Assembly: GCA_002928875.1 (NCBI GenBank)
Contig: PERO01000008.1
Coordinates: 113,814-177,813 of the forward strand
Length of the DNA: 64,000 bases
Reading direction: 5' to 3'
From: Methylobacterium sp.
GTDB lineage: Bacteria > Pseudomonadota > Alphaproteobacteria > Rhizobiales > Beijerinckiaceae
Under the pieces are notes generated by a model. That model was not told the DNA's origin and did no database searches. It saw only the letters and a list, made by a program, of their open reading frames with translations. Below, piece by piece: positions 13,464 through 54,966 of this stretch (positions are counted from its first letter, which is position 1; every line of letters begins with the position of its first letter). Both the position numbers and the translations under genes were made by a program.

Positions 13464-14327
13464 GTGGAGCTTCTGGTCCCGGTCCTGCTCACGATCTTCG
13501 TCTGGTGGTTCGCCACGGGGGCGGTGCTGTATCTCAACGGCCTGCCCGCGTGCACCTTCCGCTGGAGCAACGGGATCACCGGGCTGATCGGGTTGTGCGG
13601 ACTTTTCGCCCTGCATCTCACCCGCGAGGACAACACGCCGACAGGGGCCTATACGGCCTTTTTCGGCGCGCTCGCGGTCTGGGCCTGGAACGAGATGAGC
13701 TTCCTGCTCGGCCACATCACCGGTTCCACCCGCGAGGAATGCCCGCATGATGCGCGGGGCCTCCGCCGATTCATCCTCGCGGTCCAGAGCATCATCTACC
13801 ACGAGCTGGTGATCCTCGCTTCCGCGGTGGCGATCGCGATCGTCACCTGGGGCGCGACGAACCGCTTCGGGCTCTACACGTTCCTCGTTTTCTGGGTGAT
13901 GCGGCTCTCGACCAAGTTCAACATCTTCCTCGGCGTGCCGAATATCACCGTGCAGTTCCTGCCCAAGCACCTGGCCTATCTCGCGACCTATTTCGCGCAT
14001 CGGCCGATGAACCTGCTCTTCCCGTTCTCGGTCACGCTCTCGACGCTCGCGGCCGCCCGGCTCACCCATCTCGCCATCAAGGCACCCGACGGGGGTTTTG
14101 AAAGCGTCGGGTTCGCGATGGTCGCCACCCTGCTGGTGCTCGGCGTGCTCGAGCACTGGTTTCTCGTCATCCCGCTGCCTTTCGGGGAACTCTGGTCCTG
14201 GGGGATGGGTGCGCGCGAAGGCCGCGTGCAGCCTCAGCATCACAAGCCCGACAAGATTGCGATTGCCTTGCCTTCCGCCATCGTCACCCCGCCTGTGGGG
14301 CCGCCGATCAAGACCAGCCGGACGTGA
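13464..14327 (+). CDS. puhE: PuhE, photosynthetic complex assembly protein 2
   Basis: 287-residue polytopic inner-membrane protein (about six to seven hydrophobic segments) matching the PuhE family found after puhC/acsF in purple bacteria, with conserved stretches [20 protein letters not shown] and [15 protein letters not shown]. The GTG at 13464 is preceded by GAGGGGAAG at proper distance; an in-frame TTG at 13449 lies in the acsF stop and is less likely. Role in reaction centre or pigment assembly is known only genetically. Confidence 0.9.
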
Positions 14328-44310: not shown

Positions 44311-44400
44311 GGAGAGGTGGCAGAGTGGTCGATCGCGCCGCACTCGAAATGCGGAGTCCGTGCAAGCGGACCGGGGGTTCGAATCCCTCCCTCTCCGCCA
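44311..44400 (+). tRNA. tRNA-Ser (anticodon CGA)
   Basis: 90 nt with encoded CCA. Acceptor stem GGAGAGG pairs with CCTCTCC; long variable arm as expected for serine; anticodon stem CCGCA/TGCGG with loop CTCGAAA gives anticodon CGA at 44345-44347 (reads UCG codons); T-arm contains GGTTCGAATC. Confidence 0.97.
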
Positions 44401-44693: not shown

Positions 44694-44719
44694 GTAACGA
44701 GACGGTGCCTGCATTCGAA
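44694..44719 (+). promoter_or_regulatory. ECF-sigma promoter 1 (radical SAM gene)
   Basis: GTAACG (44694-44699), 16-nt spacer, CGAA (44716-44719). Identical architecture to four other sites in this block and to the promoter of the ECF sigma gene at 54.9 kb; resembles the published Caulobacter SigF consensus as I recall it (GTAACC-N16-CGAA). Start codon lies 41 nt downstream. Confidence 0.85.
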
Positions 44720-44759
44720 TGTCTGAAGGCAGGTCACATTAATTCCGGAACGCAAAGAC

Positions 44760-45707
44760 ATGGACTTTGGAACGCTCGGCAGAGCCAAATTTGACGATCC
44801 GCTTTTCACGGCCAAGGGGGAGCGACGCGCCCATGTCGCCCTCACCGCGCTCGAAACGCTGTGGTTCAACACGGGCACCTTGTGCAACATCACCTGTCAG
44901 AATTGCTACATCGAGAGTTCGCCCCGAAACGACAGGCTCGCCTATCTCTCGCTGGACGACGTGCGCTCCTATCTCGACGAGATCCGTGCGGACAAACTTC
45001 CCGTCCGGATGATCGGCTTCACGGGCGGCGAACCGTTCATGAATGCCGCCATGCCCGCCATTCTGGAGGAAACCCTCGAGCGCGGCTTCGAAGTGCTCGT
45101 GCTCACCAACGCGATGCGCCCGATGATGCGCCATCAGAAGGCGCTCAGGCGGCTGCAGGCGGCCCATGGCGGCTTGCTGCGCTTTCGGGTATCGCTGGAT
45201 GACCACCGGCCGGACATCCATGATGCGGAGCGCGGAAAGGGGTCCTTCGCCAAGGCGATGGAGGGGTTGCGCTTTCTCTCCCGCGAGGGCTTCCAGGTGG
45301 AGATCGCCGGCCGTCGCCTCGGCAAGGAACCGGACCATCTGGCGCGCGCGGGTTACAAGGCGCTGTTCCAGGCGGAGGGCATCGCCATCAATTGCGATGA
45401 TCCGGTTCAGCTCGTCATCTTTCCGGAAATGAGCCCGGAAGCCGACCCGCCGGAAATCACGGAAGCCTGCTGGGGCATTCTCCACAAGAGCCCGGAGGAT
45501 GTGATGTGCGCCACATCGCGCATGGTCGTGCGGCGGAAGGGCGAGGATCGTCCCAAGGTCGTGGCCTGCACGCTGATTGCCTATGACGAGCGCTTTGAAA
45601 TGGGCTCGACGCTTGCCGAGGCGAGCGCGCCGGTCGCCCTCAATCACCGGTATTGCGCGACATTCTGTGTCCTCGGTGGCGCGGCTTGCGGGACAACCAA
45701 GGGCTGA
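44760..45707 (+). CDS. Radical SAM protein with C-terminal cysteine motif
   Basis: 315 residues. The radical SAM [4Fe-4S] motif is CNITCQNC (CxxxCxxC, about residues 43-50) with following aromatic Tyr; GFTGGEPFMN (about 86) is the SAM-binding GGE motif and FRVSLDDHRPDIHD the next strand. The C-terminus has conserved-looking cysteines (MCATSRMVV, VACTLI, YCATFCVLGGAACG) that may bind an auxiliary cluster. It does not look like ArsS (DUF3641), the radical SAM enzyme of known arsenosugar synthesis. First gene of the sigma-controlled block; substrate unknown. Confidence 0.85.
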   Translation: MDFGTLGRAKFDDPLFTAKGERRAHVALTALETLWFNTGTLCNITCQNCYIESSPRNDRLAYLSLDDVRSYLDEIRADKLPVRMIGFTGGEPFMNAAMPAILEETLERGFEVLVLTNAMRPMMRHQKALRRLQAAHGGLLRFRVSLDDHRPDIHDAERGKGSFAKAMEGLRFLSREGFQVEIAGRRLGKEPDHLARAGYKALFQAEGIAINCDDPVQLVIFPEMSPEADPPEITEACWGILHKSPEDVMCATSRMVVRRKGEDRPKVVACTLIAYDERFEMGSTLAEASAPVALNHRYCATFCVLGGAACGTTKG

Positions 45708-45757
45708 GGGGTGCTCCGGATTACGGGCGAGCGGACGTGAATGCGCGGGACGCTCCC

Positions 45758-45783
45758 GTAACGTTACAACCGCTTCCCGCGAA
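45758..45783 (+). promoter_or_regulatory. ECF-sigma promoter 2 (phosphoesterase gene)
   Basis: GTAACG (45758-45763), 16 nt, CGAA (45780-45783), 28 nt before the start codon. The -35 element is part of a palindrome GTAACGTTAC. Confidence 0.85.
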
Positions 45784-45811
45784 GACAGGATGATGACTGG
45801 GGGATCACGTC

Positions 45812-46663
45812 ATGCTTGACCGCACCTGGCTCCTTTTCGGGGGCCCCTATGGAAACCTCCAGGCCACCCAGGCCTTGCTGGCCGAAGCCGGATCGCTCGG
45901 GATTTCTCCGGACCGCATGCTCTGCACGGGAGATCTCGTCGCCTATTGCGGTGATCCGGTGGCCACGATCGATCTGATCCGCGAGGCGGGAATTCCGGTG
46001 GTGATGGGCAATTGCGACGAGCAACTGGCGGCAGGCGCGGCAGATTGCGGCTGCGGCTTTGATGAAGACAGCGCCTGCGCCCGCCTTTCGGCGGATTGGT
46101 ATGCCTATGCCGACAGCGTTGTCCGCCCCGATCAGCGGGCCTGGCTCGCAACCCTGCCCAAGCGGATCGACCTCGAAATCGGCGGGCGGTCGCTGGCAGC
46201 GATCCACGGATCGGCGCACCTCATCAACGCCTTCGTCTTTGCCGGAACCCCTGTCGCCGCCAAGGAGGACAGCCTCGATGCGCTGGGATGCGACGGGGTC
46301 ATCGGCGGGCATTGCGGCCTTCCCTTCACGGAGAAGCTCGGTCATCGGCTCTGGCACAATCCCGGCGTGATTGGCATGCCGGCGAATGATGGAACGGCCC
46401 GGGTCTGGTTCAGCCTGATCACGCCCGGTGAAGATGGCCTGAGCATCGAGCATCGCGCGCTGCGCTACGATCATGAGGCCGCGCAAGCCGCGATGCATCG
46501 GGCCGGCCTGCCCGCCTGCTATCGCGAGGCGCTCGCGACGGGGCTCTGGCCCAATCTCGATGTCCTGCCGCAACGCGAGCGCGACGAGACCGGCATTCCC
46601 CTGCTGGCGGCGCAGAATTTCTGGCGAAATCGGGAAGCGCGCCGCGTCTCGGATGCGGCATGA
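45812..46663 (+). CDS. Metallophosphoesterase-like protein with altered first metal motif
   Basis: 283 residues, calcineurin-like fold by motif order: CTGDLVAYCGDP (GD, about 39), VVMGNCDEQL (GNxD/E, about 67), AIHGSAHLINAFVF (about 130) and IGGHCGLPF (GHT-like, about 168). The usual first motif DxH reads FGGPYGN, so two metal ligands are absent or replaced; the middle has a CGCG pair (ADCGCGFDEDSAC). It may bind a different metal or have lost activity. It has its own sigma promoter and follows the radical SAM gene. Confidence 0.78.
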   Translation: MLDRTWLLFGGPYGNLQATQALLAEAGSLGISPDRMLCTGDLVAYCGDPVATIDLIREAGIPVVMGNCDEQLAAGAADCGCGFDEDSACARLSADWYAYADSVVRPDQRAWLATLPKRIDLEIGGRSLAAIHGSAHLINAFVFAGTPVAAKEDSLDALGCDGVIGGHCGLPFTEKLGHRLWHNPGVIGMPANDGTARVWFSLITPGEDGLSIEHRALRYDHEAAQAAMHRAGLPACYREALATGLWPNLDVLPQRERDETGIPLLAAQNFWRNREARRVSDAA

Positions 46664-46666
46664 TCC

Positions 46667-47314
46667 TCATCCGAGCGGCTGCATCGCCTGTCGAACGGTC
46701 AGCCGCAGGTGGAGCCATGTGGTGCGGAACCAGCCGTTCCGGCGATACTTGCGTGCGCTGGTGAGGATTCTTGCGCCAACGGGTTCGACAGCCAGCCCCT
46801 TGCGCCGGGCCTTCCGGACGAGAAGGTGGTCTTCGCCGTGGATCGCGCTCTCATCATATTGCCCAAGCGCACGAAAATTGTGCCGGGACAGGCAGAGTGC
46901 CTGATCGCCAAAGGGCAGCCGCATCAGCCGCGACCGGATGAGAACACCCAGTTCCGTGAGGCGCATCAGCAATCCGCCATCGAAACGCAGGTCGAAATAG
47001 AGGATGGCCCGATCATTGGGGAGCTTGCCGATCAGCGCGCGGATCGCCGCCGGTTCGAGGCCCGAATCGGCATGGACGAACCAGAGATATGCCCCCGCCG
47101 CGATCGCCGCCGCGTGGTTCATGCTCGTGGCCCGCGTGCCGCCCCGCGCCAGGATGATTTCGACATCATCCGGCATGGCAGCGAGCAGTTCACCCGGTTC
47201 CGCTTCGCCGTTCGCCAGCGGAATGATGACGCTGATCAGCACCCCGGCTTCGCGCTGAGGTCGCCAGATCTCAAGGGTCACGGGCGTGCCGGGCGGAATG
47301 GAAGGAATTGCCAT
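46667..47314 (-). CDS. Glycosyltransferase family 2, rSAM/selenodomain-associated (TIGR04283-like)
   Basis: 215-residue soluble GT-A transferase. LISVIIPLANGEAEPGEL (start of Rossmann part), IILARGGTRATSMNHAAAIAAG, LWFVHADSGLEP (DxD-like HADS), and LPFGDQALCLSRHNFRALGQYDE, then GEDHLLVRKARRKG. The FGDQ segment and short length fit TIGR04283 ('transferase 2, rSAM/selenodomain-associated'), now often labelled arsenosugar biosynthesis glycosyltransferase. It is the only biosynthetic gene of the block on the - strand before the sigma operon, and has its own matching promoter. Confidence 0.82.
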   Translation of the reverse strand: MAIPSIPPGTPVTLEIWRPQREAGVLISVIIPLANGEAEPGELLAAMPDDVEIILARGGTRATSMNHAAAIAAGAYLWFVHADSGLEPAAIRALIGKLPNDRAILYFDLRFDGGLLMRLTELGVLIRSRLMRLPFGDQALCLSRHNFRALGQYDESAIHGEDHLLVRKARRKGLAVEPVGARILTSARKYRRNGWFRTTWLHLRLTVRQAMQPLG

Positions 47315-47415
47315 TGTGCCTCATGTGGCTGGGTTCGGTCATCGGATGGCGGGTCTTGCGCGGGTCGGCGCGCCTTGGTCGCCTTCGTCGAAGCGGCATG
47401 CACCTTGATTTGAAT

Positions 47416-47441
47416 TTCGCCGCCGGCGGTGCGTCCGTTAC
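47416..47441 (-). promoter_or_regulatory. ECF-sigma promoter 3 (TIGR04283-like glycosyltransferase)
   Basis: On the - strand GTAACG (47441-47436), 16 nt, CGAA (47419-47416). About 100 nt upstream of the glycosyltransferase start, back to back with promoter 4. Confidence 0.82.
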
Positions 47442-47599
47442 AATCCTTCCTGTCCTGCGTCTCACCCGATCCGACAACCGACAGATGGCCGGAATGATCG
47501 CGTCTGGCTGGTATAGTCAAACCCGGCTTTGCCCGCGAGACCGGGCGTGCCACACCGGCATGGAACGGATGATCGCGATCGGCGATCATCGCAGGTCCT

Positions 47600-47625
47600 G
47601 TAACAAAGGGGGCCGGGCATCCGAA
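47600..47625 (+). promoter_or_regulatory. ECF-sigma promoter 4 (oxidoreductase-VTT-DUF547 operon)
   Basis: GTAACA (47600-47605), 16 nt, CGAA (47622-47625), 39 nt before the oxidoreductase start codon. One base differs from the other four sites at the last -35 position. Confidence 0.82.
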
Positions 47626-47663
47626 TATGTCCGGGTAGCCCTCGAATCCGTCCCGGAGTTTCC

Positions 47664-49139
47664 ATGGCTGGTCCTCTGCCCTCGCTTCCGCCCAAGCGCC
47701 CCGACATCCGGGGGGATGTCATCCATGCGGATCTCTGCATCATCGGCGCGGGTTCGGGCGGGCTTTCCGTGGCGGCTGGTGCCGTGCAGATGGGCGCGTC
47801 GGTGGTGCTCATCGAGAAGGGCGAGATGGGCGGCGATTGCCTGAACACGGGCTGCGTGCCCTCCAAGGCGCTGATTGCCGCGGCCCATATCGCCCACACG
47901 CACCGGATCGGCGACCGTTTCGGCATTCACGGCGGCGAGCCCGATGTGCGGTTCGCGGAAGTGCATGACCATGTCCACGGCGTCATCGGCGCGATCGCTC
48001 CGCATGACAGTGTGGATCGCTTCGAAGGCCTGGGTGTCATGGTCATCCAGGCGAAGGCGCAATTCGTCGATCGGGAAACGGTCGAAGCGGGCGGCCGGCG
48101 GATCAAGGCGCGGCGCTTCGTCGTCGCCACCGGCTCGCGGGCAGCCGTTCCGCCCATCCCCGGCCTTGCCGGTTCGGGTTACCTCACGAACGAGACGATC
48201 TTCGATCTCCGGGAACGCCCGCAGCATCTCATCGTCGTGGGGGGCGGGCCGATCGGGCTGGAGATGGCGCAGGCCTTCCGGCGCCTCGGCTCGGAGGTCA
48301 CCGTCATCGAGAAGTTCGGGATCCTCGCGCGGGATGAACCGGAGGCGGTCGAGGTCGTGCGTGCCTCGGTGCTGAAGGACGGCGTGCGCCTGATCGAGAA
48401 GGTCGGCGTCAGCGAAATCCGGCCAGCGGATGGCACAATCACGGTCGTGCTGGATGGCGAAAGCGCGTTCGGGCGCGACATTGTGGGCACGCATCTGCTT
48501 GTTGCGACGGGCCGGCGGCCGAATATCGAGGATCTGGGGCTCGAAGCCGCCGGCATTGCTCATACGCCAAAGGGCATCACGGTCGATGCGCGGCTCCTCA
48601 CCAGCAATCGCAAGGTCTTCGCGATGGGTGATGTGGCGGGCGGGCCGCAATTCACGCATATCGCGGGCTATCACGCGGGGATTGTCATCCGGAATGCCTT
48701 GTTCTGGCTGCCGGCCAAGGTCGATTACCGGGCCCTGCCCTGGGTGACCTATACCGACCCGGAACTCGCCCATGCCGGCTTGACCGAAGCCGAGGCGCGC
48801 AAGGCCGGCCATGCGGTGGAGGTGCTGAACTGGTCCTTTGCGCTCAATGATCGCGCCCAGGCCGAGCGGGCGACCGAGGGCCTTGCCAAGGTCATCCTCG
48901 GTCCGAAGGGCAAGATCCTCGGCGCGACGATCGTGGGCCCGCGGGCGGGCGAACTGATCGGGACCTGGGGCCTCGCGATCTCCGCCGGGCTGAAGATCGG
49001 CGCGATCGCATCGGCCATCCTGCCCTATCCCACCCTCTCGGAAATCTCGAAACGCGCTGCGGGAAGCTATTACACGCCGAAGCTGTTCGGCGCCTTCACC
49101 CGCCGCATTGTCGGGCTCATCCAACGATTTCTCCCCTGA
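47664..49139 (+). CDS. Pyridine nucleotide-disulfide oxidoreductase family protein (mercuric reductase-like)
   Basis: 491 residues. FAD motif DLCIIGAGSGGLSVAAGAVQMGA (about 24), redox pair CLNTGCVPSKAL (about 58), NAD motif LIVVGGGPIGLEMAQAFRRLG, and FAMGDVAGGPQFTH. In lipoamide dehydrogenase and MerA the dimer interface supplies a catalytic His in HxHPTxSE; here it reads ILPYPTLSEIS, so the base is Tyr. The N-terminal metal-binding and C-terminal Cys pair of MerA are absent. Members of this type commonly stand beside, or are fused to, VTT proteins, as here (11 nt gap). Substrate unknown. Confidence 0.85.
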   Translation: MAGPLPSLPPKRPDIRGDVIHADLCIIGAGSGGLSVAAGAVQMGASVVLIEKGEMGGDCLNTGCVPSKALIAAAHIAHTHRIGDRFGIHGGEPDVRFAEVHDHVHGVIGAIAPHDSVDRFEGLGVMVIQAKAQFVDRETVEAGGRRIKARRFVVATGSRAAVPPIPGLAGSGYLTNETIFDLRERPQHLIVVGGGPIGLEMAQAFRRLGSEVTVIEKFGILARDEPEAVEVVRASVLKDGVRLIEKVGVSEIRPADGTITVVLDGESAFGRDIVGTHLLVATGRRPNIEDLGLEAAGIAHTPKGITVDARLLTSNRKVFAMGDVAGGPQFTHIAGYHAGIVIRNALFWLPAKVDYRALPWVTYTDPELAHAGLTEAEARKAGHAVEVLNWSFALNDRAQAERATEGLAKVILGPKGKILGATIVGPRAGELIGTWGLAISAGLKIGAIASAILPYPTLSEISKRAAGSYYTPKLFGAFTRRIVGLIQRFLP

Positions 49140-49150
49140 AAGAGACCGGC

Positions 49151-49867
49151 ATGTCGTTCTCCTCGCTCCTGAAGGATCGCCGCGTCTGGCTGGTGCTCGT
49201 GGCCATCGGGGCCTTCCTGTTGCTGCGCTGGTCGGGCCTGGCGAGCTACCTTTCCCTTGATACGCTGAAAAACCATCGGGAGGCGCTGACGGGCTGGGTG
49301 CAGGGCAGCCTCGTGCTCGCAAGTCTCGCCTATGTCGGGGTCTATGTTGTGGCCGTGGCCTTTTCCCTGCCGGGGGCCGTCTTCCTCACCCTCGCGGGGG
49401 GATTCCTGTTCGGCGCGACACTGGGAACCCTGCTGACCGTGACGGGCGCCACGATTGGCGCGACGCTGGTCTTCCTCTTCGCCAAGGTGATCTTTGGCGA
49501 GAATGCGCTGGATCGTTTCGGAGCGCCGGCGGCGAAGCTGGCCGAGGGCATCCGGCGCAATGCCGGCTCCTATCTGCTCGTGCTGCGTCTCGTGCCGCTC
49601 TTCCCGTTCTTCCTCGTCAACCTCGTGCCGGCCTTCGTCGGCGTGAAACTGCCGACCTATGTGCTGACCACGTTTTTCGGGATCATTCCCGGCACCGCCG
49701 TCTTCTCGCTCGCCGGAGCGGGCCTCGGTTCCGTTCTGGATCAGGGCGGTGCCATCACGCCGGGCTCGATCCTGACGCCCGAGATCATCGCGGGCCTCGT
49801 CGGGCTCGCCTTGCTGTCGCTGGCAGCCATTCCGCTGCGCAAACGCTTCGCCAATCGGGGCGGTTGA
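49151..49867 (+). CDS. TVP38/TMEM64 (VTT) family membrane protein
   Basis: 238 residues with about five to six hydrophobic segments. The VTT core is FSLPGAVFLTLAGGFLFGATLGTLLTVTGATIGATLVFLFAK (about 72-115) followed by NAGSYLLVLRLVPLFPFFLVNLVPAF. VTT proteins are membrane proteins of the DedA superfamily linked to lipid handling. It lies between the oxidoreductase and the DUF547 gene, both nearly overlapping, so it belongs to the sigma-controlled operon. Confidence 0.88.
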   Translation: MSFSSLLKDRRVWLVLVAIGAFLLLRWSGLASYLSLDTLKNHREALTGWVQGSLVLASLAYVGVYVVAVAFSLPGAVFLTLAGGFLFGATLGTLLTVTGATIGATLVFLFAKVIFGENALDRFGAPAAKLAEGIRRNAGSYLLVLRLVPLFPFFLVNLVPAFVGVKLPTYVLTTFFGIIPGTAVFSLAGAGLGSVLDQGGAITPGSILTPEIIAGLVGLALLSLAAIPLRKRFANRGG

Positions 49868-50736
49868 TGGTCGAGCCCCGGATTTCCATGGAGACACGAT
49901 CGATGCATACCCTGTCCCCGCATGTCTCTCGTCCTGTCTCCCGCCGGATGGCCCTCGGGCTTGGCCTCACCCTTGTGCTGGCGCAGGGATCGCGCGCGCT
50001 GGCGCAGGGCGATGCCGATGCCCCCTATGATGCGCTTCTGCGCCGCTATGTGAAGCCGGGCGCGGATGGCGTGACGCGCGTCAATTATGCCGGCTGGCGC
50101 GCCAATGCCGCCGACCGTGCGGCGCTCGATGCCTATCTTGCCGAACTGGCGCAGCGTCGGCCCTCTGCCATGGCCCGGGGCGAGGCCCTGGCCTATTGGG
50201 GCAATCTCTACAATGCCGTCACCCTGAAGGTCGTGATCGACCGGTATCCCGTGGCCTCGATCCGCGACATCAAGAGCGATTCCTGGCTCGATCCGAAGGC
50301 CTTTGCGGGGCCGTGGCGGCAGCCGCGGGTCACGGTGGAGGGGCGCAAGCTCTCGCTCGATGATATCGAGCATGCCATCATGCGCCCCACATTCAAGGAC
50401 CCGCGCATCCATTATGTGGTGAACTGCGCCTCCTATGGCTGCCCCAATCTTTTGAACCGGGCTTGGCGCGCCGCCACACTCGAGGCTGACATGGATGCCG
50501 CCGCGCGCGCCTTCATCAATCATCCGCGCGGGGTCACGGTGCTCCCCACGGGCGGGCTCAGGGTGTCGTCGATCTACAAATGGTTCATCGAGGATTTCGG
50601 CGGCAACGATGCCGGGCTCCTCGCGCATTTCAACCGCTTTGCCGGACCGGCGCTGAAACAGCAGCTCGCGGCATCGCCGCAGATCGTGGCCGATGCCTAT
50701 GACTGGTCGCTCAACCGGATCAGCCCCGGTTCCTGA
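49867..50736 (+). CDS. DUF547 family exported protein
   Basis: 289 residues. The N-terminal region has SRRMALGLGLTLVLAQGSRALAQ (about 20-42), an export signal with a twin arginine, possibly Tat. The mature part is DUF547: VNYAGWRANAADRAALDAYL, ALAYWGNLYNAVTLKVVIDRYP, LSLDDIEHAIMRPTFKDPRIHYVVNCASYGCPNL (with a Cys pair) and VSSIYKWFIEDFGG. DUF547 proteins carry a papain-like-looking Cys/His arrangement but no activity is established. ATG 49867 overlaps the VTT stop by one base. In several bacteria DUF547 genes accompany TIGR04282/04283 genes. Confidence 0.82.
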   Translation: MVEPRISMETRSMHTLSPHVSRPVSRRMALGLGLTLVLAQGSRALAQGDADAPYDALLRRYVKPGADGVTRVNYAGWRANAADRAALDAYLAELAQRRPSAMARGEALAYWGNLYNAVTLKVVIDRYPVASIRDIKSDSWLDPKAFAGPWRQPRVTVEGRKLSLDDIEHAIMRPTFKDPRIHYVVNCASYGCPNLLNRAWRAATLEADMDAAARAFINHPRGVTVLPTGGLRVSSIYKWFIEDFGGNDAGLLAHFNRFAGPALKQQLAASPQIVADAYDWSLNRISPGS

Positions 50737-50836
50737 GTATGGCGAGATCGCAGCTACCGAGCGGGCCAGGGGGCGAGATCCTCCGGGTGACGGGTCACGA
50801 GGCCCCGCATGCGCGTGGCCTTGAAAGGTCCGGGCC

Positions 50837-51541
50837 GTGACCCCCGCTCCGATTGCACTCGGGCTGATGTGCAAGCCGCCGCGCCCCGGCACCAGCAAGA
50901 CTCGCCTTGCGGCCCGCATCGGGCCCGAAGCTGCGGCACGCCTCTCCCGCGCCTTCCTCGAGGATACCGCGCGGACGGTGCAGGCCGCCGCCTTTCGGGC
51001 GAGGATCGAGCCCCGCGCCTATTTCCGGCCGGCCGATGCGGCACCGGAGATCGCGGCGATCCTTGGCCCGGAATGGCACCTTGCCTTTGCGGATGCCGGC
51101 GAACTCGGCGCGACCATGCAGGAGGTTCTGGCGGCGGGCCTGCGGCATTGTCCGGCCGGCGCGATGATCATTGGTGCGGATGTGCCGCTCCTGAGCAGCG
51201 ATATCCTCGTCGAGACGGCGGATTGCCTTCGAGACGGCGATCCCGATCAGGTCGTGATCGTCCCGAGCGTCGATGGCGGCTACTGCCTGCTCGGACTGCG
51301 CCGCCCGGATGCTGCCGCCACGCTCTGCGCGCCGATGGCCTGGAGCACATCAGGGGTGCTGGATGAAACGTTGCGTCGTGCATCAAGGGCCGGTCTGACC
51401 GTCCGGCTTTTCCCCGCGCAGCGGGACATCGACGAGCAAGCCGATCTCGACTGGCTGCGCGGCCAGCTCGCGCGCGAAGACGGCAAGGCCCCGAACACGA
51501 GGGCGGTTCTGGCTGAATTCGGGGAGGCCCTGTTCCGATGA
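50837..51541 (+). CDS. DUF2064 glycosyltransferase-like protein, rSAM/selenodomain-associated (TIGR04282-like)
   Basis: 234-residue CofC/MobA-like nucleotidyl- or glycosyltransferase. LGLMCKPPRPGTSKTRLAARIGP (nucleotide-binding, about 8-30), MIIGADVPLLSSDILVE (DxP metal site, about 112) and VVIVPSVDGGYCLLGLRR. This fits TIGR04282 ('transferase 1, rSAM/selenodomain-associated'). GTG 50837 chosen as first start after a 100-nt gap; the stop overlaps the next gene (ATGA). Works presumably in series with the TIGR04283-like transferase. Confidence 0.83.
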   Translation: MTPAPIALGLMCKPPRPGTSKTRLAARIGPEAAARLSRAFLEDTARTVQAAAFRARIEPRAYFRPADAAPEIAAILGPEWHLAFADAGELGATMQEVLAAGLRHCPAGAMIIGADVPLLSSDILVETADCLRDGDPDQVVIVPSVDGGYCLLGLRRPDAAATLCAPMAWSTSGVLDETLRRASRAGLTVRLFPAQRDIDEQADLDWLRGQLAREDGKAPNTRAVLAEFGEALFR

Positions 51542-52674
51542 GCCGGAAGCTGGTGCTGGTCGGCGGCGGCCACGCGCATGTCCAGGTCATCCGCGCGCTG
51601 GCGGAACACCCGGAGCCCGATCTTTCGGTGACGCTGGTGACCGACCGGTTGCTCACGCCCTATTCGGGCATGCTGCCGGGGTATATTGCCGGGTTCTACA
51701 GCCATGCCGGGATGCATATTGATCTCGGGCGTCTCGCCCGGGTTTCGGGCGTGTCGCTGGTGCCATCCGCCGCGAACGGGATCGATCGCGCGAGCCGCCA
51801 TGTGCGCACCGACGATGGCCGCACGATCCCCTACGACATTCTCTCGCTCAATACAGGGGTCACGCCGGATCTCTCGGGAATCGCGGGGGCCGGGGAACAT
51901 GGCATCGCGGTCAAGCCCATCAGCACGTTTCTCGAAAGGCTCGATGCGCTTCTCGCAGATGCCACGCGCCTAGATGGGCCACGGCGGATCGTGGTGGTGG
52001 GCGGCGGTGCCGCCGGGATCGAACTGGCCTTCGCGCTCAAGGCGCGGCTGCGCCGGATCGAGACCGCCCGACGCCCGTTCTGGATTGCCATCGCCGCCGG
52101 CAGCCGGCTCGTCCCGACCCTGAATGCGGGTGTCCGCCTGCGTGTCCGCGCTGCATTGGCGCGCCAGGGCGTCACCGTGATTGATGCCTTTCGTGTCGTC
52201 GACATCAATGCCGATGGCATCCGTGCCGCGGATGGACGCTTCATCGAGGCCGATGCGGTGCTGATCTCGACGGCGGCCAAGGCCCCGGACTGGCTGGGCG
52301 AGACCGGGCTCGCGACGACCACTGGCGGTTTTCTCGCCATTGCGCCCACGCTTGCCTCGATCAGCGATCCCGCGATCTTCGCCGTCGGGGATTGCGCGAC
52401 CGTGATATCCGATCCCATGCCGAAGGCCGGGGTCTTTGCCGTCCGGCAGGGTCAAGCCCTGACCGGGAACATCCGCCGCGCCTTGCGGGGCGAACCCCTC
52501 GCGCCGCACCGGCCGGACCGGAACTTCCTGACGATCCTGATGACCGGGGATGGCTCGGCCATTGCCGGCCGCGGTGCCTGGCTCGCCGTGGAAGGGCGCT
52601 GGGTCTGGCGCTGGAAGGACTGGATCGACCGGCGCTTCATGCAGCGGTTTTCGGAATTCCGGCGCGAGCGCTAA
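51538..52674 (+). CDS. Stand-alone SelD-N-terminal-type FAD/NAD(P) oxidoreductase (TIGR03169-like)
   Basis: 378 residues. LVLVGGGHAHVQVIRALAEHPEPD (residues 5-28), TDRLLTPYSGMLPGYIAGFYSHAGMHIDLGRLAR (about 42-75), RIVVVGGGAAGIELAFALKAR (about 150) and IFAVGDCATVI (about 280). The HAHVQVIRAL and TPYSGMLPGYIAG signatures are those of the domain that in some bacteria is fused in front of selenophosphate synthetase SelD; no kinase domain is present here. This is the 'selenodomain' after which the neighbouring transferases are named. Last + strand gene of the operon; faces a repeat and the - strand phosphorylase. Confidence 0.83.
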   Translation: MSRKLVLVGGGHAHVQVIRALAEHPEPDLSVTLVTDRLLTPYSGMLPGYIAGFYSHAGMHIDLGRLARVSGVSLVPSAANGIDRASRHVRTDDGRTIPYDILSLNTGVTPDLSGIAGAGEHGIAVKPISTFLERLDALLADATRLDGPRRIVVVGGGAAGIELAFALKARLRRIETARRPFWIAIAAGSRLVPTLNAGVRLRVRAALARQGVTVIDAFRVVDINADGIRAADGRFIEADAVLISTAAKAPDWLGETGLATTTGGFLAIAPTLASISDPAIFAVGDCATVISDPMPKAGVFAVRQGQALTGNIRRALRGEPLAPHRPDRNFLTILMTGDGSAIAGRGAWLAVEGRWVWRWKDWIDRRFMQRFSEFRRER

Positions 52675-52691
52675 ATCCGCGCCGGCTGCTG

Positions 52692-52784
52692 GAGCGGTTT
52701 CCGATCGGCCTGAATCAGATCAACCGCTCTCTCTCTGTCTTGTCGCATTTTCTGATCGCCCGCCGATATCCGCGGGAAAATGCC
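52692..52784. repeat. Palindromic intergenic repeat element, copy 2 (inverted)
   Basis: Begins GAGCGGTTTCCGATCGGC and ends GGGAAAATGC; its reverse complement aligns with the element at 39644-39745 over nearly the full length (GCATTTTC ... TCAGAAAATGCGACA ... GATCTGAT ... CCGATCGGAAACCGCTC). It fills the gap between two convergent genes. Confidence 0.85.
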
Positions 52785-52790
52785 CGAGCC

Positions 52791-53660
52791 CTATCGCAGA
52801 ACGCGCCCCGCCACCGCATCCAGCCTCGCCACGAGGGCGGGATCGCGCGCGTCCGGCGCGGTGATGATCGCGAAATCGAGTGCGCGATGCGAACCGACCG
52901 GGCATTCCTCGCGCTGAAGCGGAAAATCGGCGGCCATTTCGGCCAGAACGCGGCGCGCGGCCTGCGTGTTGTCGTGCACCTGCCGCAGGATCAGCTCGAT
53001 ATTGACGTCGCCGTGATCCGGATGCCAGCAATCGAAATCCGTCACCATCGCGCACATGCAATAGGTGATCTCGGCCTCGCGCGCGAGCTTGGCCTCGGGC
53101 ATCGAGGTCATGCCGATCACGTCATGGCCCTGCCCCTTGTAGAAGAGGCTTTCGGCCCGCGTCGAGAATTGCGGCCCTTCCATGCAGACCGCCGTTCCAC
53201 CCTCGCGGATCGTCACGCCGGCCCGGCGCGCCGCCGCGGCCACCCTTTGCCTCAGACGGGGCCCGAACGGATCGCCAAACGGGACATGCGCGACGCATCC
53301 ATTGCCGAAGAAGCTGCTCTCGCGCGCAGAGGTCCGATCCAGCAGCTGGTCGGGCAGCACGAAGGTGCCGGGCGGCAGTTCCTCCCGGTAGGACCCCACC
53401 GCCGAGAAACTGACGATATCGGTCACGCCCGCCCGCTTCAGCGCATCGATGTTCGCCCGGTAGTTGATCCCGGTGGGCGAGAAGCGATGGCCATCGCCAT
53501 GCCGGGGCAGGAAGACGATCTCGGTGGTGCCGATGCGCCCGAAACGGAGCGCCGCGGAGGGTGCCCCCCAAGGCGTCTCGACCATCTCCTCGCGGCGATC
53601 CTCCAGACCTGGCAGGTCGTAAAGTCCTGAACCACCGATGACACCCAGCCGAGCCTTCAT
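52791..53660 (-). CDS. 5'-methylthioadenosine phosphorylase family enzyme
   Basis: 289 residues. MTAP motifs: GVIGGSGLYDLPGL (phosphate Ser), RHGDGHRFSPTGINYRANI, FSAVGSYREELPPGTFVLPDQLLDRT, GGTAVCMEGPQFSTRAES, IGMTSMPEAKLAREAEI and TDFDCW; the Asp-x-Asp there is the adenine-recognition pair. It would cleave 5'-modified adenosines with phosphate to adenine and ribose-1-phosphate derivatives. ATG 53660 chosen with AGGGA upstream. It lies downstream of the anti-sigma gene on the same strand, so it may serve this block's pathway as well as, or instead of, methionine salvage (mtnP). Confidence 0.88.
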   Translation of the reverse strand: MKARLGVIGGSGLYDLPGLEDRREEMVETPWGAPSAALRFGRIGTTEIVFLPRHGDGHRFSPTGINYRANIDALKRAGVTDIVSFSAVGSYREELPPGTFVLPDQLLDRTSARESSFFGNGCVAHVPFGDPFGPRLRQRVAAAARRAGVTIREGGTAVCMEGPQFSTRAESLFYKGQGHDVIGMTSMPEAKLAREAEITYCMCAMVTDFDCWHPDHGDVNIELILRQVHDNTQAARRVLAEMAADFPLQREECPVGSHRALDFAIITAPDARDPALVARLDAVAGRVLR

Positions 53661-53719
53661 GATGCAATTCCCTGATACAGCGTGTTGAAGATGGGTCTTT
53701 ATGGCAAAGCCTGCCGGGC

Positions 53720-54355
53720 CTACCAGCGCAGCAGGTTTCGCCCGAGAATCGCGCCCAGAGCCGCGACCAGAACCGCCGCGAGCGAATACCACGTCGCGAC
53801 GAAGACCGGGTTGTCCTCGGTGCAGAAAACGCCATAGGCGATGATCGCCAAACCCGCCGAAGCGAGGCCCGCAAGGCCGCCGGAAAGGGCGGGAGCGGTC
53901 GTTGCTCCGCCCCGCAAGGCGCAGAGCGACACGATCAGCGGCAGCAAGGCGAGCGATGGGATGATCGTCAGGCAGGCCACGACGCTGCTGCCGAACATGC
54001 GAAGAAACCAGCCATCCGCGCCGCGAAACATCAGGTCCGCGCCGAGGAGAACCGCCAGGAAGACCGCGATGGTCGCCAGACGCCGCAAGGGCTCGTCGAT
54101 CGAGACTTCCGGCCGGATGAGTGTCCTTGCCCCCGGGATGGCTGCCCAGGCCAGCAAGGCGCCGAGGATCATCTTCATGAGCGTTGGCAACAGGCCATCA
54201 CCGAGCAGGTCCGCGCGCGCGCCTGCAAGCAGCAGGAAGGCGCTGCCGGTCAGGATCGCGGTCGGCAGCATCCAGCGCATCAGTGCCGTGCCCGGATGTC
54301 CGGGTCGGGACGGCAGATCCTCGGCCAGGAGCTGGATGAAATGTTCAGTTTTCAT
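53720..54355 (-). CDS. nrsF: NrsF (DUF1109) family anti-sigma factor
   Basis: 211-residue membrane protein: short cytosolic N-terminus (TEHFIQLLAEDLPSR) then six hydrophobic segments. Two cysteines conserved in this family, in VACLTIIPSLALLP and VFCTEDNPVFVATWY, are present; in Caulobacter NrsF they are needed to sense metals such as chromate/cadmium. ATG 54355 overlaps the end of the sigma gene by 11 nt, so the pair is translationally coupled. Expected to hold the sigma factor inactive at the membrane until the signal arrives. Confidence 0.88.
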   Translation of the reverse strand: MKTEHFIQLLAEDLPSRPGHPGTALMRWMLPTAILTGSAFLLLAGARADLLGDGLLPTLMKMILGALLAWAAIPGARTLIRPEVSIDEPLRRLATIAVFLAVLLGADLMFRGADGWFLRMFGSSVVACLTIIPSLALLPLIVSLCALRGGATTAPALSGGLAGLASAGLAIIAYGVFCTEDNPVFVATWYSLAAVLVAALGAILGRNLLRW

Positions 54356-54926
54356 GGGTTCCGGTTCCATCGGGCCCGGCCCTGAAGCTTGCCGCGAGTT
54401 TCCTGAGTGCACGATGGAGAGCGACGCGAACCGCGCCTTCGCTCATCCCGAGCGCGCGGCCCACTTCCGATGCCGAGCGGCCCATCAGCATGATCTGTTC
54501 GACGATCTCGCGCTGGCGGGCGTCAAGCGCATCCAGCAGGCGCCGGCTGTCCAACGCGTCATCCCCGTGTCCCTCCGGCGCGGGAAGGGCGTCCTCCAGC
54601 CCGTCGAGTTCAACCTCCTTGCGCAGGCCAGACCGGCGCAAGGCATCGATCGTCTTGTAGCGTGACACGGCGTTCAGCCATGGCGTGAACGGCAGAGTCC
54701 GGTCCCAGGTCGCCCGCTTGAGATGGATGGCGAGCAGGGTCTCCTGGACGATATCCTCGAGATCGGCCGTGCCCCGCCCGGCCCGCATCAGCACGCGCCG
54801 GACGTCATTGCGCAGATGCGGCGTGATCGCACCGAGCAGGGTCCGATAGGCGTGGGCATCCCCGTCAAGAGCCAGGCGCATCAGGCGGCTCCATTCCTCT
54901 TCGTGTCCGGACTGGCGTTCCTGCAC
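54345..54926 (-). CDS. sigF: ECF RNA polymerase sigma factor, SigF (ECF16-like)
   Basis: 193 residues. Region 2: EEEWSRLMRLALDGDAHAYRTLLG and LEDIVQETLLAIHLKRATWDRTLPFTPWL; region 4: LDARQREIVEQIMLMGRSASEVGRALGMSEGAVRVALHRALRKLA. The GTG at 54926 lies just downstream of a matching promoter; ATG 54878 (MRLALDGD) is the alternative. Coupling to an NrsF-type anti-sigma factor places it with Caulobacter SigF. Its promoter matches four others in the block, so it should activate itself and the biosynthetic genes. Confidence 0.9.
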   Translation of the reverse strand: MQERQSGHEEEWSRLMRLALDGDAHAYRTLLGAITPHLRNDVRRVLMRAGRGTADLEDIVQETLLAIHLKRATWDRTLPFTPWLNAVSRYKTIDALRRSGLRKEVELDGLEDALPAPEGHGDDALDSRRLLDALDARQREIVEQIMLMGRSASEVGRALGMSEGAVRVALHRALRKLAASFRAGPDGTGTHEN

Positions 54927-54940
54927 ATGTCATCCTGTCA

Positions 54941-54966
54941 TTCGGACTTCGGGAGGCATCCGTTAC
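54941..54966 (-). promoter_or_regulatory. ECF-sigma promoter 5 (autoregulatory, sigF-nrsF-phosphorylase)
   Basis: On the - strand GTAACG (54966-54961), 16 nt, CGAA (54944-54941), about 15 nt before the GTG start. Exact match to promoters 1-3, which links this sigma factor to the rest of the block. Confidence 0.87.

What the first reader, a model, noticed from the sequence alone, without database searches (positions are those of the whole stretch)
44694..54966. Five identical-architecture ECF promoters define an autoregulated regulon over an 11-gene block
GTAAC(G/A)-N16-CGAA occurs at 44694, 45758, 47441 (- strand), 47600 and 54966 (- strand), each just upstream of a gene start, always with exactly 16 nt spacing, and once before the ECF sigma gene itself. 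Nine fixed bases plus fixed spacing five times within 10 kb is far beyond chance in this composition. As I recall it, Caulobacter SigF uses GTAACC-N16-CGAA, and this sigma factor is likewise paired with an NrsF anti-sigma. So the sigma factor should control the radical SAM, phosphoesterase, both glycosyltransferases, oxidoreductase/VTT/DUF547 genes and the phosphorylase.
Basis: partly seen in the sequence, partly recalled or inferred. Interest (0 to 1): 0.93.

Follow-up and report, generated by a model that had tools for sequence, protein, structure and literature searches.

The report
Stress sigma factor with unusual regulon
Five copies of one promoter-like sequence, found at matching places in related bacteria, stand before a stress sigma factor gene and four neighbouring gene units that it is predicted to switch on together; in many other bacteria the same sequence stands before copper-binding-peptide or protein-repair genes instead.

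Summary
GTAAC-N-N16-CGAA occurs exactly five times in the window (shuffle expectation 0.05), at the stated places, 14-101 nt before start codons. The assembly holds ten matches, five of them here; the backwards control gives 17, so the other five are background level. The adjacent genes are an ECF sigma factor and the assembly's only NrsF anti-sigma factor. In 80 loci around relatives of the radical SAM gene, 36 of 174 upstream regions carry GTAAC-N16-CGWA; other spacings give 0-3. So this is, very probably, an autoregulated ECF16 (Caulobacter SigF-type) regulon of five units and 11 genes. What is new is the target set. Around 80 NrsF genes across the class, the commonest families behind the motif are MNIO/bufferin, DsbD/thioredoxin and methionine-sulfoxide-reductase genes; 2 of 80 stretches carry the radical SAM, phosphoesterase and oxidoreductase set, and no MNIO gene was found in this (84% complete) assembly. 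The chemistry is unsolved. Some relatives place the radical SAM gene with arsenite-methyltransferase-like, arsenate-reductase-like and phosphate or phosphonate importer genes, hinting at organoarsenical or similar chemistry, but ArsM was not found here or in 14 other cluster genomes. No expression data exist here.

The parts
44694..44719 (+). ECF16-type promoter P1, before the radical SAM gene
   Evidence: same distance (-67 in the count) in L011 and L012
44760..45707 (+). Radical SAM protein, 315 aa, CxxxCxxC plus six conserved C-terminal cysteines
   Evidence: PF04055 4.8e-19; cysteines
45758..45783 (+). ECF16-type promoter P2, before the phosphoesterase gene
   Evidence: -55 here, -56 and -54 in L011 and L012
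45812..46663 (+). Calcineurin-like metallophosphoesterase
   Evidence: PF12850 9.1e-8
46667..47314 (-). GT-A-like glycosyltransferase, TIGR04283-related
   Evidence: TIGR04283 134.8 bits, cut-off 182
47416..47441 (-). ECF16-type promoter P3, before the glycosyltransferase gene
   Evidence: -127 here and in L011; L012 has a CGTA form at -151
47600..47625 (+). ECF16-type promoter P4, before the oxidoreductase operon
   Evidence: exact site before PNDR in 9 other loci (L011, L012, L023, L025, L039, L052, L054, L065, L067)
47664..49139 (+). MerA/RclA-like pyridine nucleotide-disulphide oxidoreductase (PNDR)
   Evidence: PF07992 2.4e-56; MerA 378.5 bits, cut-off 454.45
49151..49867 (+). VTT/TVP38-type membrane protein
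   Evidence: PF09335 4.1e-19
49903..50736 (+). DUF547 protein (start at the ATG at 49903 is my choice; the ORF opens at 49864)
   Evidence: PF04784 3.5e-22
50837..51541 (+). DUF2064/TIGR04282 CofC-like protein
   Evidence: TIGR04282 142.9 bits, cut-off 134
51538..52674 (+). FAD oxidoreductase, TIGR03169 type, free-standing
   Evidence: 415.1 bits, cut-off 310
52791..53660 (-). Methylthioadenosine phosphorylase (MTAP)
   Evidence: PRK08931 468.7 bits, cut-off 437
53720..54355 (-). NrsF membrane anti-sigma factor, Cys 128, 145, 178
   Evidence: PF06532 6.7e-37; only copy in the assembly; cysteines
54345..54926 (-). ECF16 (SigF-type) sigma factor
   Evidence: PRK12512 212.7 bits, cut-off 198
54941..54966 (-). 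ECF16-type promoter P5, before the sigma-nrsF-MTAP unit (autoregulation)

Best explanation
The five GTAAC-N16-CGAA sequences match the published promoter consensus of ECF16 sigma factors, and through them the SigF-type sigma factor encoded in the same cluster is predicted to switch on itself and four neighbouring units. By analogy with Caulobacter, NrsF would hold the sigma factor at the membrane until metal or oxidant stress alters its probably periplasm-facing cysteines; the freed sigma factor would then transcribe P1 radical SAM, P2 phosphoesterase, P3 glycosyltransferase, P4 PNDR-VTT-DUF547-TIGR04282-TIGR03169 and P5 sigma-nrsF-MTAP. The enzymes likely form a small-molecule detoxification or conversion pathway. 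My working model (about 30%) is that the radical SAM enzyme transfers a 5'-deoxyadenosyl-type group to a metalloid or similar acceptor, MTAP exchanges the adenine for phosphate, and the TIGR04282/TIGR04283 pair activates and transfers the resulting sugar. Sites, genes and conservation are shown; transcription, signal and chemistry are inferred. The confidence given is for the regulon, not for the chemistry.
For: Five of the assembly's ten matches lie in one 10-kb block. Sigma and NrsF profiles are above cut-off, and this is the only NrsF in the assembly. 174 regions upstream of cluster-gene homologues outside the window: strict CGAA form in 18, against a mean of 0.1 over 720 letter permutations (the real one included; next best 3); CGWA form at N16 in 36, other spacings 0-3. 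Sites stand at nearly the same distance from the same gene in L011 and L012. Site-bearing loci fall in four separate supported clades of the radical SAM tree. Published ECF16 systems use the same motif (PMC3511200, PMC6180224, PMC8315932, passages), and so do 53 of 80 NrsF loci of the class. For the chemistry: ArsM-like genes lie in the same gene run as the radical SAM gene in L014 and L015 (four genes downstream), directly beside it in L017 and L078, and next to PNDR beside it in L073, and 60 nt downstream of it in G140.
Against: No transcript data. Internal operon genes rest on spacing alone (100 nt before TIGR04282, 59 nt before MTAP). In Caulobacter the sigF promoter was not exclusively SigF-dependent (PMC3511200, passage), and S. 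meliloti RpoE7 reporters were not induced by H2O2, cadmium or chromate (PMC6180224, passage), so autoregulation and signal cannot simply be carried over. The radical SAM scores 64 bits against the ArsS cut-off of 300, and the window's TIGR04283 protein is below cut-off. No ArsM above cut-off in this assembly, 84% complete, and none at E 1e-25 in the 14 of 19 cluster genomes that had none in the locus (their completeness is not told). The radical SAM gene is common without ArsM: 61 of 192 genomes against 3 of 192 for the L014-type ArsM, two of those three also having the radical SAM gene. MTAP is the only copy above cut-off, so it may serve ordinary salvage. The 36 conserved regions are not independent (L014/L015 near-copies, four related Roseomonas).
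Confidence: 0.8

Rival explanations
1. About the function: the regulon is a redox or reactive-chlorine/copper response. PNDR works like RclA/MerA-type reductases on oxidised thiols or copper, and the rest repairs or buffers damage, as other ECF16 regulons do.
For: PNDR is RclA/MerA-like; ECF16 systems in Bradyrhizobium and Brucella answer H2O2 or HOCl and control methionine sulfoxide reductases (PMC3420878, PMC8315932, passages); MsrAB, DsbD and thioredoxin families occur among class-wide ECF16 targets.
Against: Does not explain the radical SAM, TIGR04282/TIGR04283, phosphoesterase and MTAP genes; PNDR is below the MerA and RclA cut-offs.
Confidence: 0.35
2. About the function: the cluster is an organoarsenical (arsenosugar-like) pathway fed by methylated arsenicals from outside, with the radical SAM protein doing the ArsS step.
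For: Hyphomicrobium L014/L015 have ECF16-NrsF-radicalSAM-PstSCAB-ArsM-ArsC-like in one run, in the same supported clade as the window protein; ArsM-like genes also adjoin it in L017 and L078, lie beside PNDR in L073 and adjoin it in G140; other loci carry a PhnCDE-like importer beside it; TIGR04282 is above cut-off.
Against: No ArsM in the window assembly or at E 1e-25 in the 14 other cluster genomes examined; ArsS profile far below cut-off. The ArsM-like proteins themselves score 158-183 bits against a cut-off of 263, and the ArsC-like one 61 against 174. The closest relative in the window assembly of the L012 phosphonate-type binding protein is only 30% identical.
Confidence: 0.25
3. The sites are a chance or composition artefact.
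For: Short pattern; five further matches exist in the assembly.
Against: Shuffles, spacing and permutation controls on other genomes and conserved positions.
Confidence: 0.01

Closest known systems
Caulobacter crescentus SigF-NrsF (ECF16)
   Same: Sigma/NrsF operon, GTAACC-N16-CGAA promoters, promoter before its own gene, two conserved NrsF cysteines (PMC3511200, passages)
   Different: Caulobacter targets are CC2905-2907, CC3254-3257 (orthologous to the S. meliloti DUF692 operon) and CC2748; here a radical SAM/PNDR/TIGR04282 cluster, and no MNIO gene found in the assembly
Sinorhizobium meliloti RpoE7-EcfR7
   Same: ECF16 with the same motif before its own operon and a divergent operon (PMC6180224, passages)
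   Different: Targets are a DUF692/DUF2063 operon
Brucella BcrS-AbcS and Bradyrhizobium EcfF-OsrA
   Same: ECF16 with a membrane anti-sigma factor and a GTAAC-type motif (PMC8315932, PMC3420878, passages)
   Different: Targets include methionine sulfoxide reductases (and a methionine-rich peptide in Brucella); motif spacings are given as N17 and N14-15
Arsenosugar pathway (ArsM, ArsS, TIGR04282, TIGR04283)
   Same: TIGR04282 above cut-off, TIGR04283-related protein, a radical SAM protein
   Different: No ArsM found; radical SAM far below the ArsS cut-off

Membership tests
ECF16 (SigF-type) sigma regulon | ECF sigma factor of the SigF kind | tested here: met
   PRK12512 212.7 bits over cut-off 198; that this model stands for ECF16 is recalled, not from a call
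ECF16 (SigF-type) sigma regulon | Adjacent NrsF/DUF1109 anti-sigma factor | tested here: met
   PF06532 6.7e-37, ORF overlaps the sigma gene
ECF16 (SigF-type) sigma regulon | Six transmembrane helices and two conserved cysteines in the anti-sigma factor | tested here: inconclusive
   Cys 128 and 178, close to 131/181 and 129/179 in print, but not aligned to those proteins; hydropathy gives about six segments, some merged
ECF16 (SigF-type) sigma regulon | GTAAC-N16-CGAA before target genes and before its own gene | tested here: met
ECF16 (SigF-type) sigma regulon | Transcription depends on the sigma factor | not testable with these tools
   Needs RNA data
ECF16-bufferin regulon | MNIO (PF05114) gene under control | tested here: not met
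   No PF05114 in the assembly, 84% complete
Arsenosugar biosynthesis | ArsS radical SAM (TIGR04167) | tested here: not met
   64.4 bits, cut-off 300, for the cluster's radical SAM protein; the rest of the genome was not searched for ArsS
Arsenosugar biosynthesis | ArsM methyltransferase | tested here: not met
   Best 68 bits, cut-off 263, assembly 84% complete; L014-type ArsM not found either
Arsenosugar biosynthesis | TIGR04282 and TIGR04283 proteins | tested here: inconclusive
   TIGR04282 over, TIGR04283 under cut-off; in the Caulobacter sp. cluster L040 both are over
MerA mercuric reductase | Profile above cut-off | tested here: not met
   378.5 bits, cut-off 454.45

The most novel reading that the evidence does not exclude
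An ECF16 sigma factor, of a group best known for copper-binding bufferin peptides and methionine repair, has been re-wired in several alphaproteobacterial lineages to a radical-SAM pathway that builds metalloid-sugar conjugates from imported methylated metalloids without its own ArsM: radical SAM adenosylation, MTAP phosphorolysis, nucleotidyl activation by the TIGR04282 protein, and transfer by the TIGR04283 protein.
Probability: 0.17. Interest if true: 0.75.

Novelty: new variant of a known kind. Interest (0 to 1): 0.5.

Why it matters
It gives a sequence-defined regulon, with site positions nearly the same in close relatives, for a set of uncharacterised genes (a radical SAM family matched in 61 of 192 alphaproteobacterial genomes sampled; TIGR04282/TIGR04283, VTT, DUF547). 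It indicates that ECF16 sigma factors may control more than bufferin and Msr genes, and it makes the function of these enzymes testable with one sigma-factor overexpression and one panel of metals and oxidants.

Tried and rejected
Selenocysteine in the radical SAM protein: the in-frame TGA reported in three genomes suggested it. In the 80 loci the two stops found (L066, L086) lie at the natural C-terminus, so I rejected it; the three genomes themselves were not read out.

Arsenosugar pathway as plain membership: rejected, because the ArsS and ArsM tests failed. Kept only as a mechanism hypothesis.

tRNA-Ser integration island: 293 nt separate the tRNA-Ser end from P1, but no direct repeat of the tRNA end was among the 20 largest repeat families shown (at least 60 existed), and a homologue of the right-hand flanking gene was not found in G158 or G058, so no empty site could be read.

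CGTA variant of the -10: frequent in relatives (14 of 36 distinct sites) but absent from this window.

Fold search with the radical SAM model (pLDDT 78.6, radical SAM loop under 50): the best matches are general radical SAM kin, BlsE and SkfB, TM about 0.5; gives no substrate.

Literature: searches for ECF16/arsenosugar/radical SAM/NrsF, arsenosugar/ArsS/glycosyltransferase/phosphorylase (12 of 157 listed) and TVP38/DUF547/ECF/radical SAM/mercuric reductase listed no paper on this cluster; the DUF547 papers listed were mostly on plants. One passage in PMC8801600 puts a TIGR04282 gene beside moaA on a predicted mobile island in Aromatoleum. All this covers open-licence PMC only.
Full report
Observation. 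The pattern GTAAC-N-N16-CGAA occurs five times in the window, at the coordinates given, and nowhere else in it; shuffles give 0.05 on average. The assembly that holds the window (3.24 Mb, 21 contigs, 84% complete) has ten exact matches, of which these are five; the same pattern read backwards has 17. The remaining five are therefore at background level. By a simple ORF caller four of them overlap an ORF and are not just upstream of another, and one (L001) lies 11 nt before a 150-aa ORF. Five or more in 10.3 kb has a probability of 1e-11 to 4e-9 under these densities, uncorrected for the choice of region. The CGTA form occurs twice in the assembly, outside the window. With one mismatch to the CGWA form the window has 15 sites against a shuffle mean of 6, so degenerate sites say little.

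Genes. Profiles identify a radical SAM protein, a metallophosphoesterase, a TIGR04283-related glycosyltransferase, a MerA/RclA-like PNDR, a VTT protein, DUF547, a TIGR04282 (DUF2064) protein, a TIGR03169 oxidoreductase, MTAP, NrsF and an ECF sigma factor. Spacing suggests PNDR-VTT-DUF547-TIGR04282-TIGR03169 as one unit (gaps 11, about 38, 100, -4) and sigma-nrsF-MTAP as another (gaps -11, 59), so five promoters can cover eleven genes. Sigma-70 and terminator scans were uninformative.

Sigma group. The motif is the one defined for Caulobacter SigF by 5'-RACE and lacZ fusions (PMC3511200, passages and abstract), reported for S. meliloti RpoE7 (PMC6180224, passages) and, as N17, for Brucella BcrS (PMC8315932, passages), and in a shorter-spaced form for Bradyrhizobium EcfF (PMC3420878, passages). 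Two cautions from the same passages: the Caulobacter sigF promoter was not exclusively SigF-dependent, and RpoE7 reporters did not answer H2O2, cadmium or chromate. The assembly has one NrsF, with cysteines at 128, 145 and 178; Caulobacter's key residues are C131 and C181.

Conservation. In the 174 regions of up to 250 nt upstream of homologues of the eleven genes, window excluded, the strict motif occurs in 18; 720 letter permutations, the real one included, average 0.1, next best 3. With CGWA, N16 gives 36 regions, N17 3, all other spacings from N7 to N25 0 or 1. The hits spread over 14 of 80 loci: L011 (titled Methylobacterium) and Rhabdaerophilum L012, Devosia-titled L013, Hyphomicrobium L014/L015, seven Roseomonas, Roseococcus and other Acetobacteraceae loci, a Caulobacter sp. 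(L040) and a Qipengyuania (L054). They are not all independent. In L011, L012 and the window the sites stand at nearly the same distances: -67 three times before the radical SAM gene; -55, -56, -54 before the phosphoesterase; -127 in the window and L011 before the glycosyltransferase (L012: CGTA form at -151); -65, -65, -63 before PNDR. On the radical SAM tree these loci lie in four separate supported clades; whether by gain, loss or transfer was not resolved.

How unusual. A class-wide search found NrsF in 87 of 387 genomes (82 over the cut-off). I took stretches of 4 to 20 kb around 80 of the 89 over-cut-off places outside this assembly (nine of them and seven weaker places left out). The strict motif occurs 76 times in 53 of these 80 loci and the CGTA form 10 times in 8; CGWA controls at other spacings or permuted give 7-21, so some sites are background. 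Only 2 of 80 (L154, L178) have the radical SAM, phosphoesterase and PNDR genes in the stretch. Of 86 sites, 15 precede the sigma/NrsF genes by my rule; 67 other proteins (first, and at times second, gene after a site) from 35 loci were called as targets. All 67 were scanned: 16 match MNIO (PF05114), 11 DUF2282, 6 DUF2063, 4 DsbD, 3 SelR, 2 PMSR, 2 DoxX, 2 thioredoxin; three NrsF and one sigma factor slipped in (25 of 32 families shown; my ORF rule is rough and found no target in L178). Bufferin clusters with sigma and NrsF genes are described in PMC12452194 (passages). This assembly has no PF05114 gene. So the targets here are rare for the group.

Function. The radical SAM protein has CxxxCxxC and six conserved C-terminal cysteines, which suggests auxiliary clusters; solved relatives are distant. 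It is matched in 61 of 192 class genomes. Of 74 entries that my neighbour count could use, within eight ORFs on either side PNDR lies near it in 15, TIGR04283 in 14, TIGR04282 in 13, VTT in 11, DUF547 in 8, phosphoesterase in 7, MTAP in 5 (7 entries without a called radical SAM ORF dropped; the window itself is one of the 74), so in most loci it stands without them. Some loci add a PhnCDE-like importer between the radical SAM and phosphoesterase genes. In Hyphomicrobium L014/L015 the order is sigma-NrsF-radical SAM-PstSCAB-ArsM-like-ArsC-like, and these radical SAM proteins lie in the same supported six-row clade as the window's. ArsM-like genes also adjoin the radical SAM gene in L017 and L078, lie next to PNDR in L073, and follow the radical SAM gene by 60 nt in G140. 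For one search I chose 19 cluster genomes: the 14 site-bearing loci (two of which, L014 and L015, have ArsM), the three further ArsM loci, and L022 and L084. The five with ArsM in the locus were found again; the other 14 have none at E 1e-25. In the 192-genome sample the L014-type ArsM occurs in 3, of which 2 have the radical SAM gene. This ties the enzyme to methylated arsenic in some lineages, but not in most. I therefore put the arsenic reading at about 0.25 and a redox/copper reading at about 0.35.

Verdict. A real, autoregulated ECF16 regulon by sequence, untested in expression, with a target set that is rare for the group and of unknown chemistry.

Noticed in passing
window 44311-44400: tRNA-Ser (CGA) lies 293 nt before the first promoter; another genome of the same genus (G158) had no match to the radical SAM protein (E <= 1e-60) or to NrsF (E <= 0.001), so the cluster may be accessory, but no repeat or empty site was found.
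   Followed up: partly
L014 8055-15181, L015 1622-8748: Hyphomicrobium run of ECF16, NrsF, radical SAM, PstSCAB-like importer, ArsM-like and ArsC-like genes, with a CGTA-type site before the sigma and the radical SAM genes.
   Followed up: partly
L012 10986-13548: Phosphonate-type ABC importer genes lie between the radical SAM and phosphoesterase genes; a minus-strand ECF16 site at 13494, next to the phosphoesterase's own site, falls inside the 5' end of the binding-protein ORF as called and would be upstream if translation starts at a later ATG. In L011 the same stretch is called only as fragments.
   Followed up: no
L035, L058, L078: Records titled Klebsiella, Latescibacterota and Elusimicrobia carry this mainly alphaproteobacterial radical SAM gene; mislabelled or mixed assemblies are likely for some.
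   Followed up: no
L039 7822, L052 7823, L065 7823, L059 2358 (- strand): Conserved exact ECF16-like site in Roseomonas, inside or antisense to a called ORF beside a family of about 450-550 aa whose L011 member has no Pfam match; target unclear.
   Followed up: no
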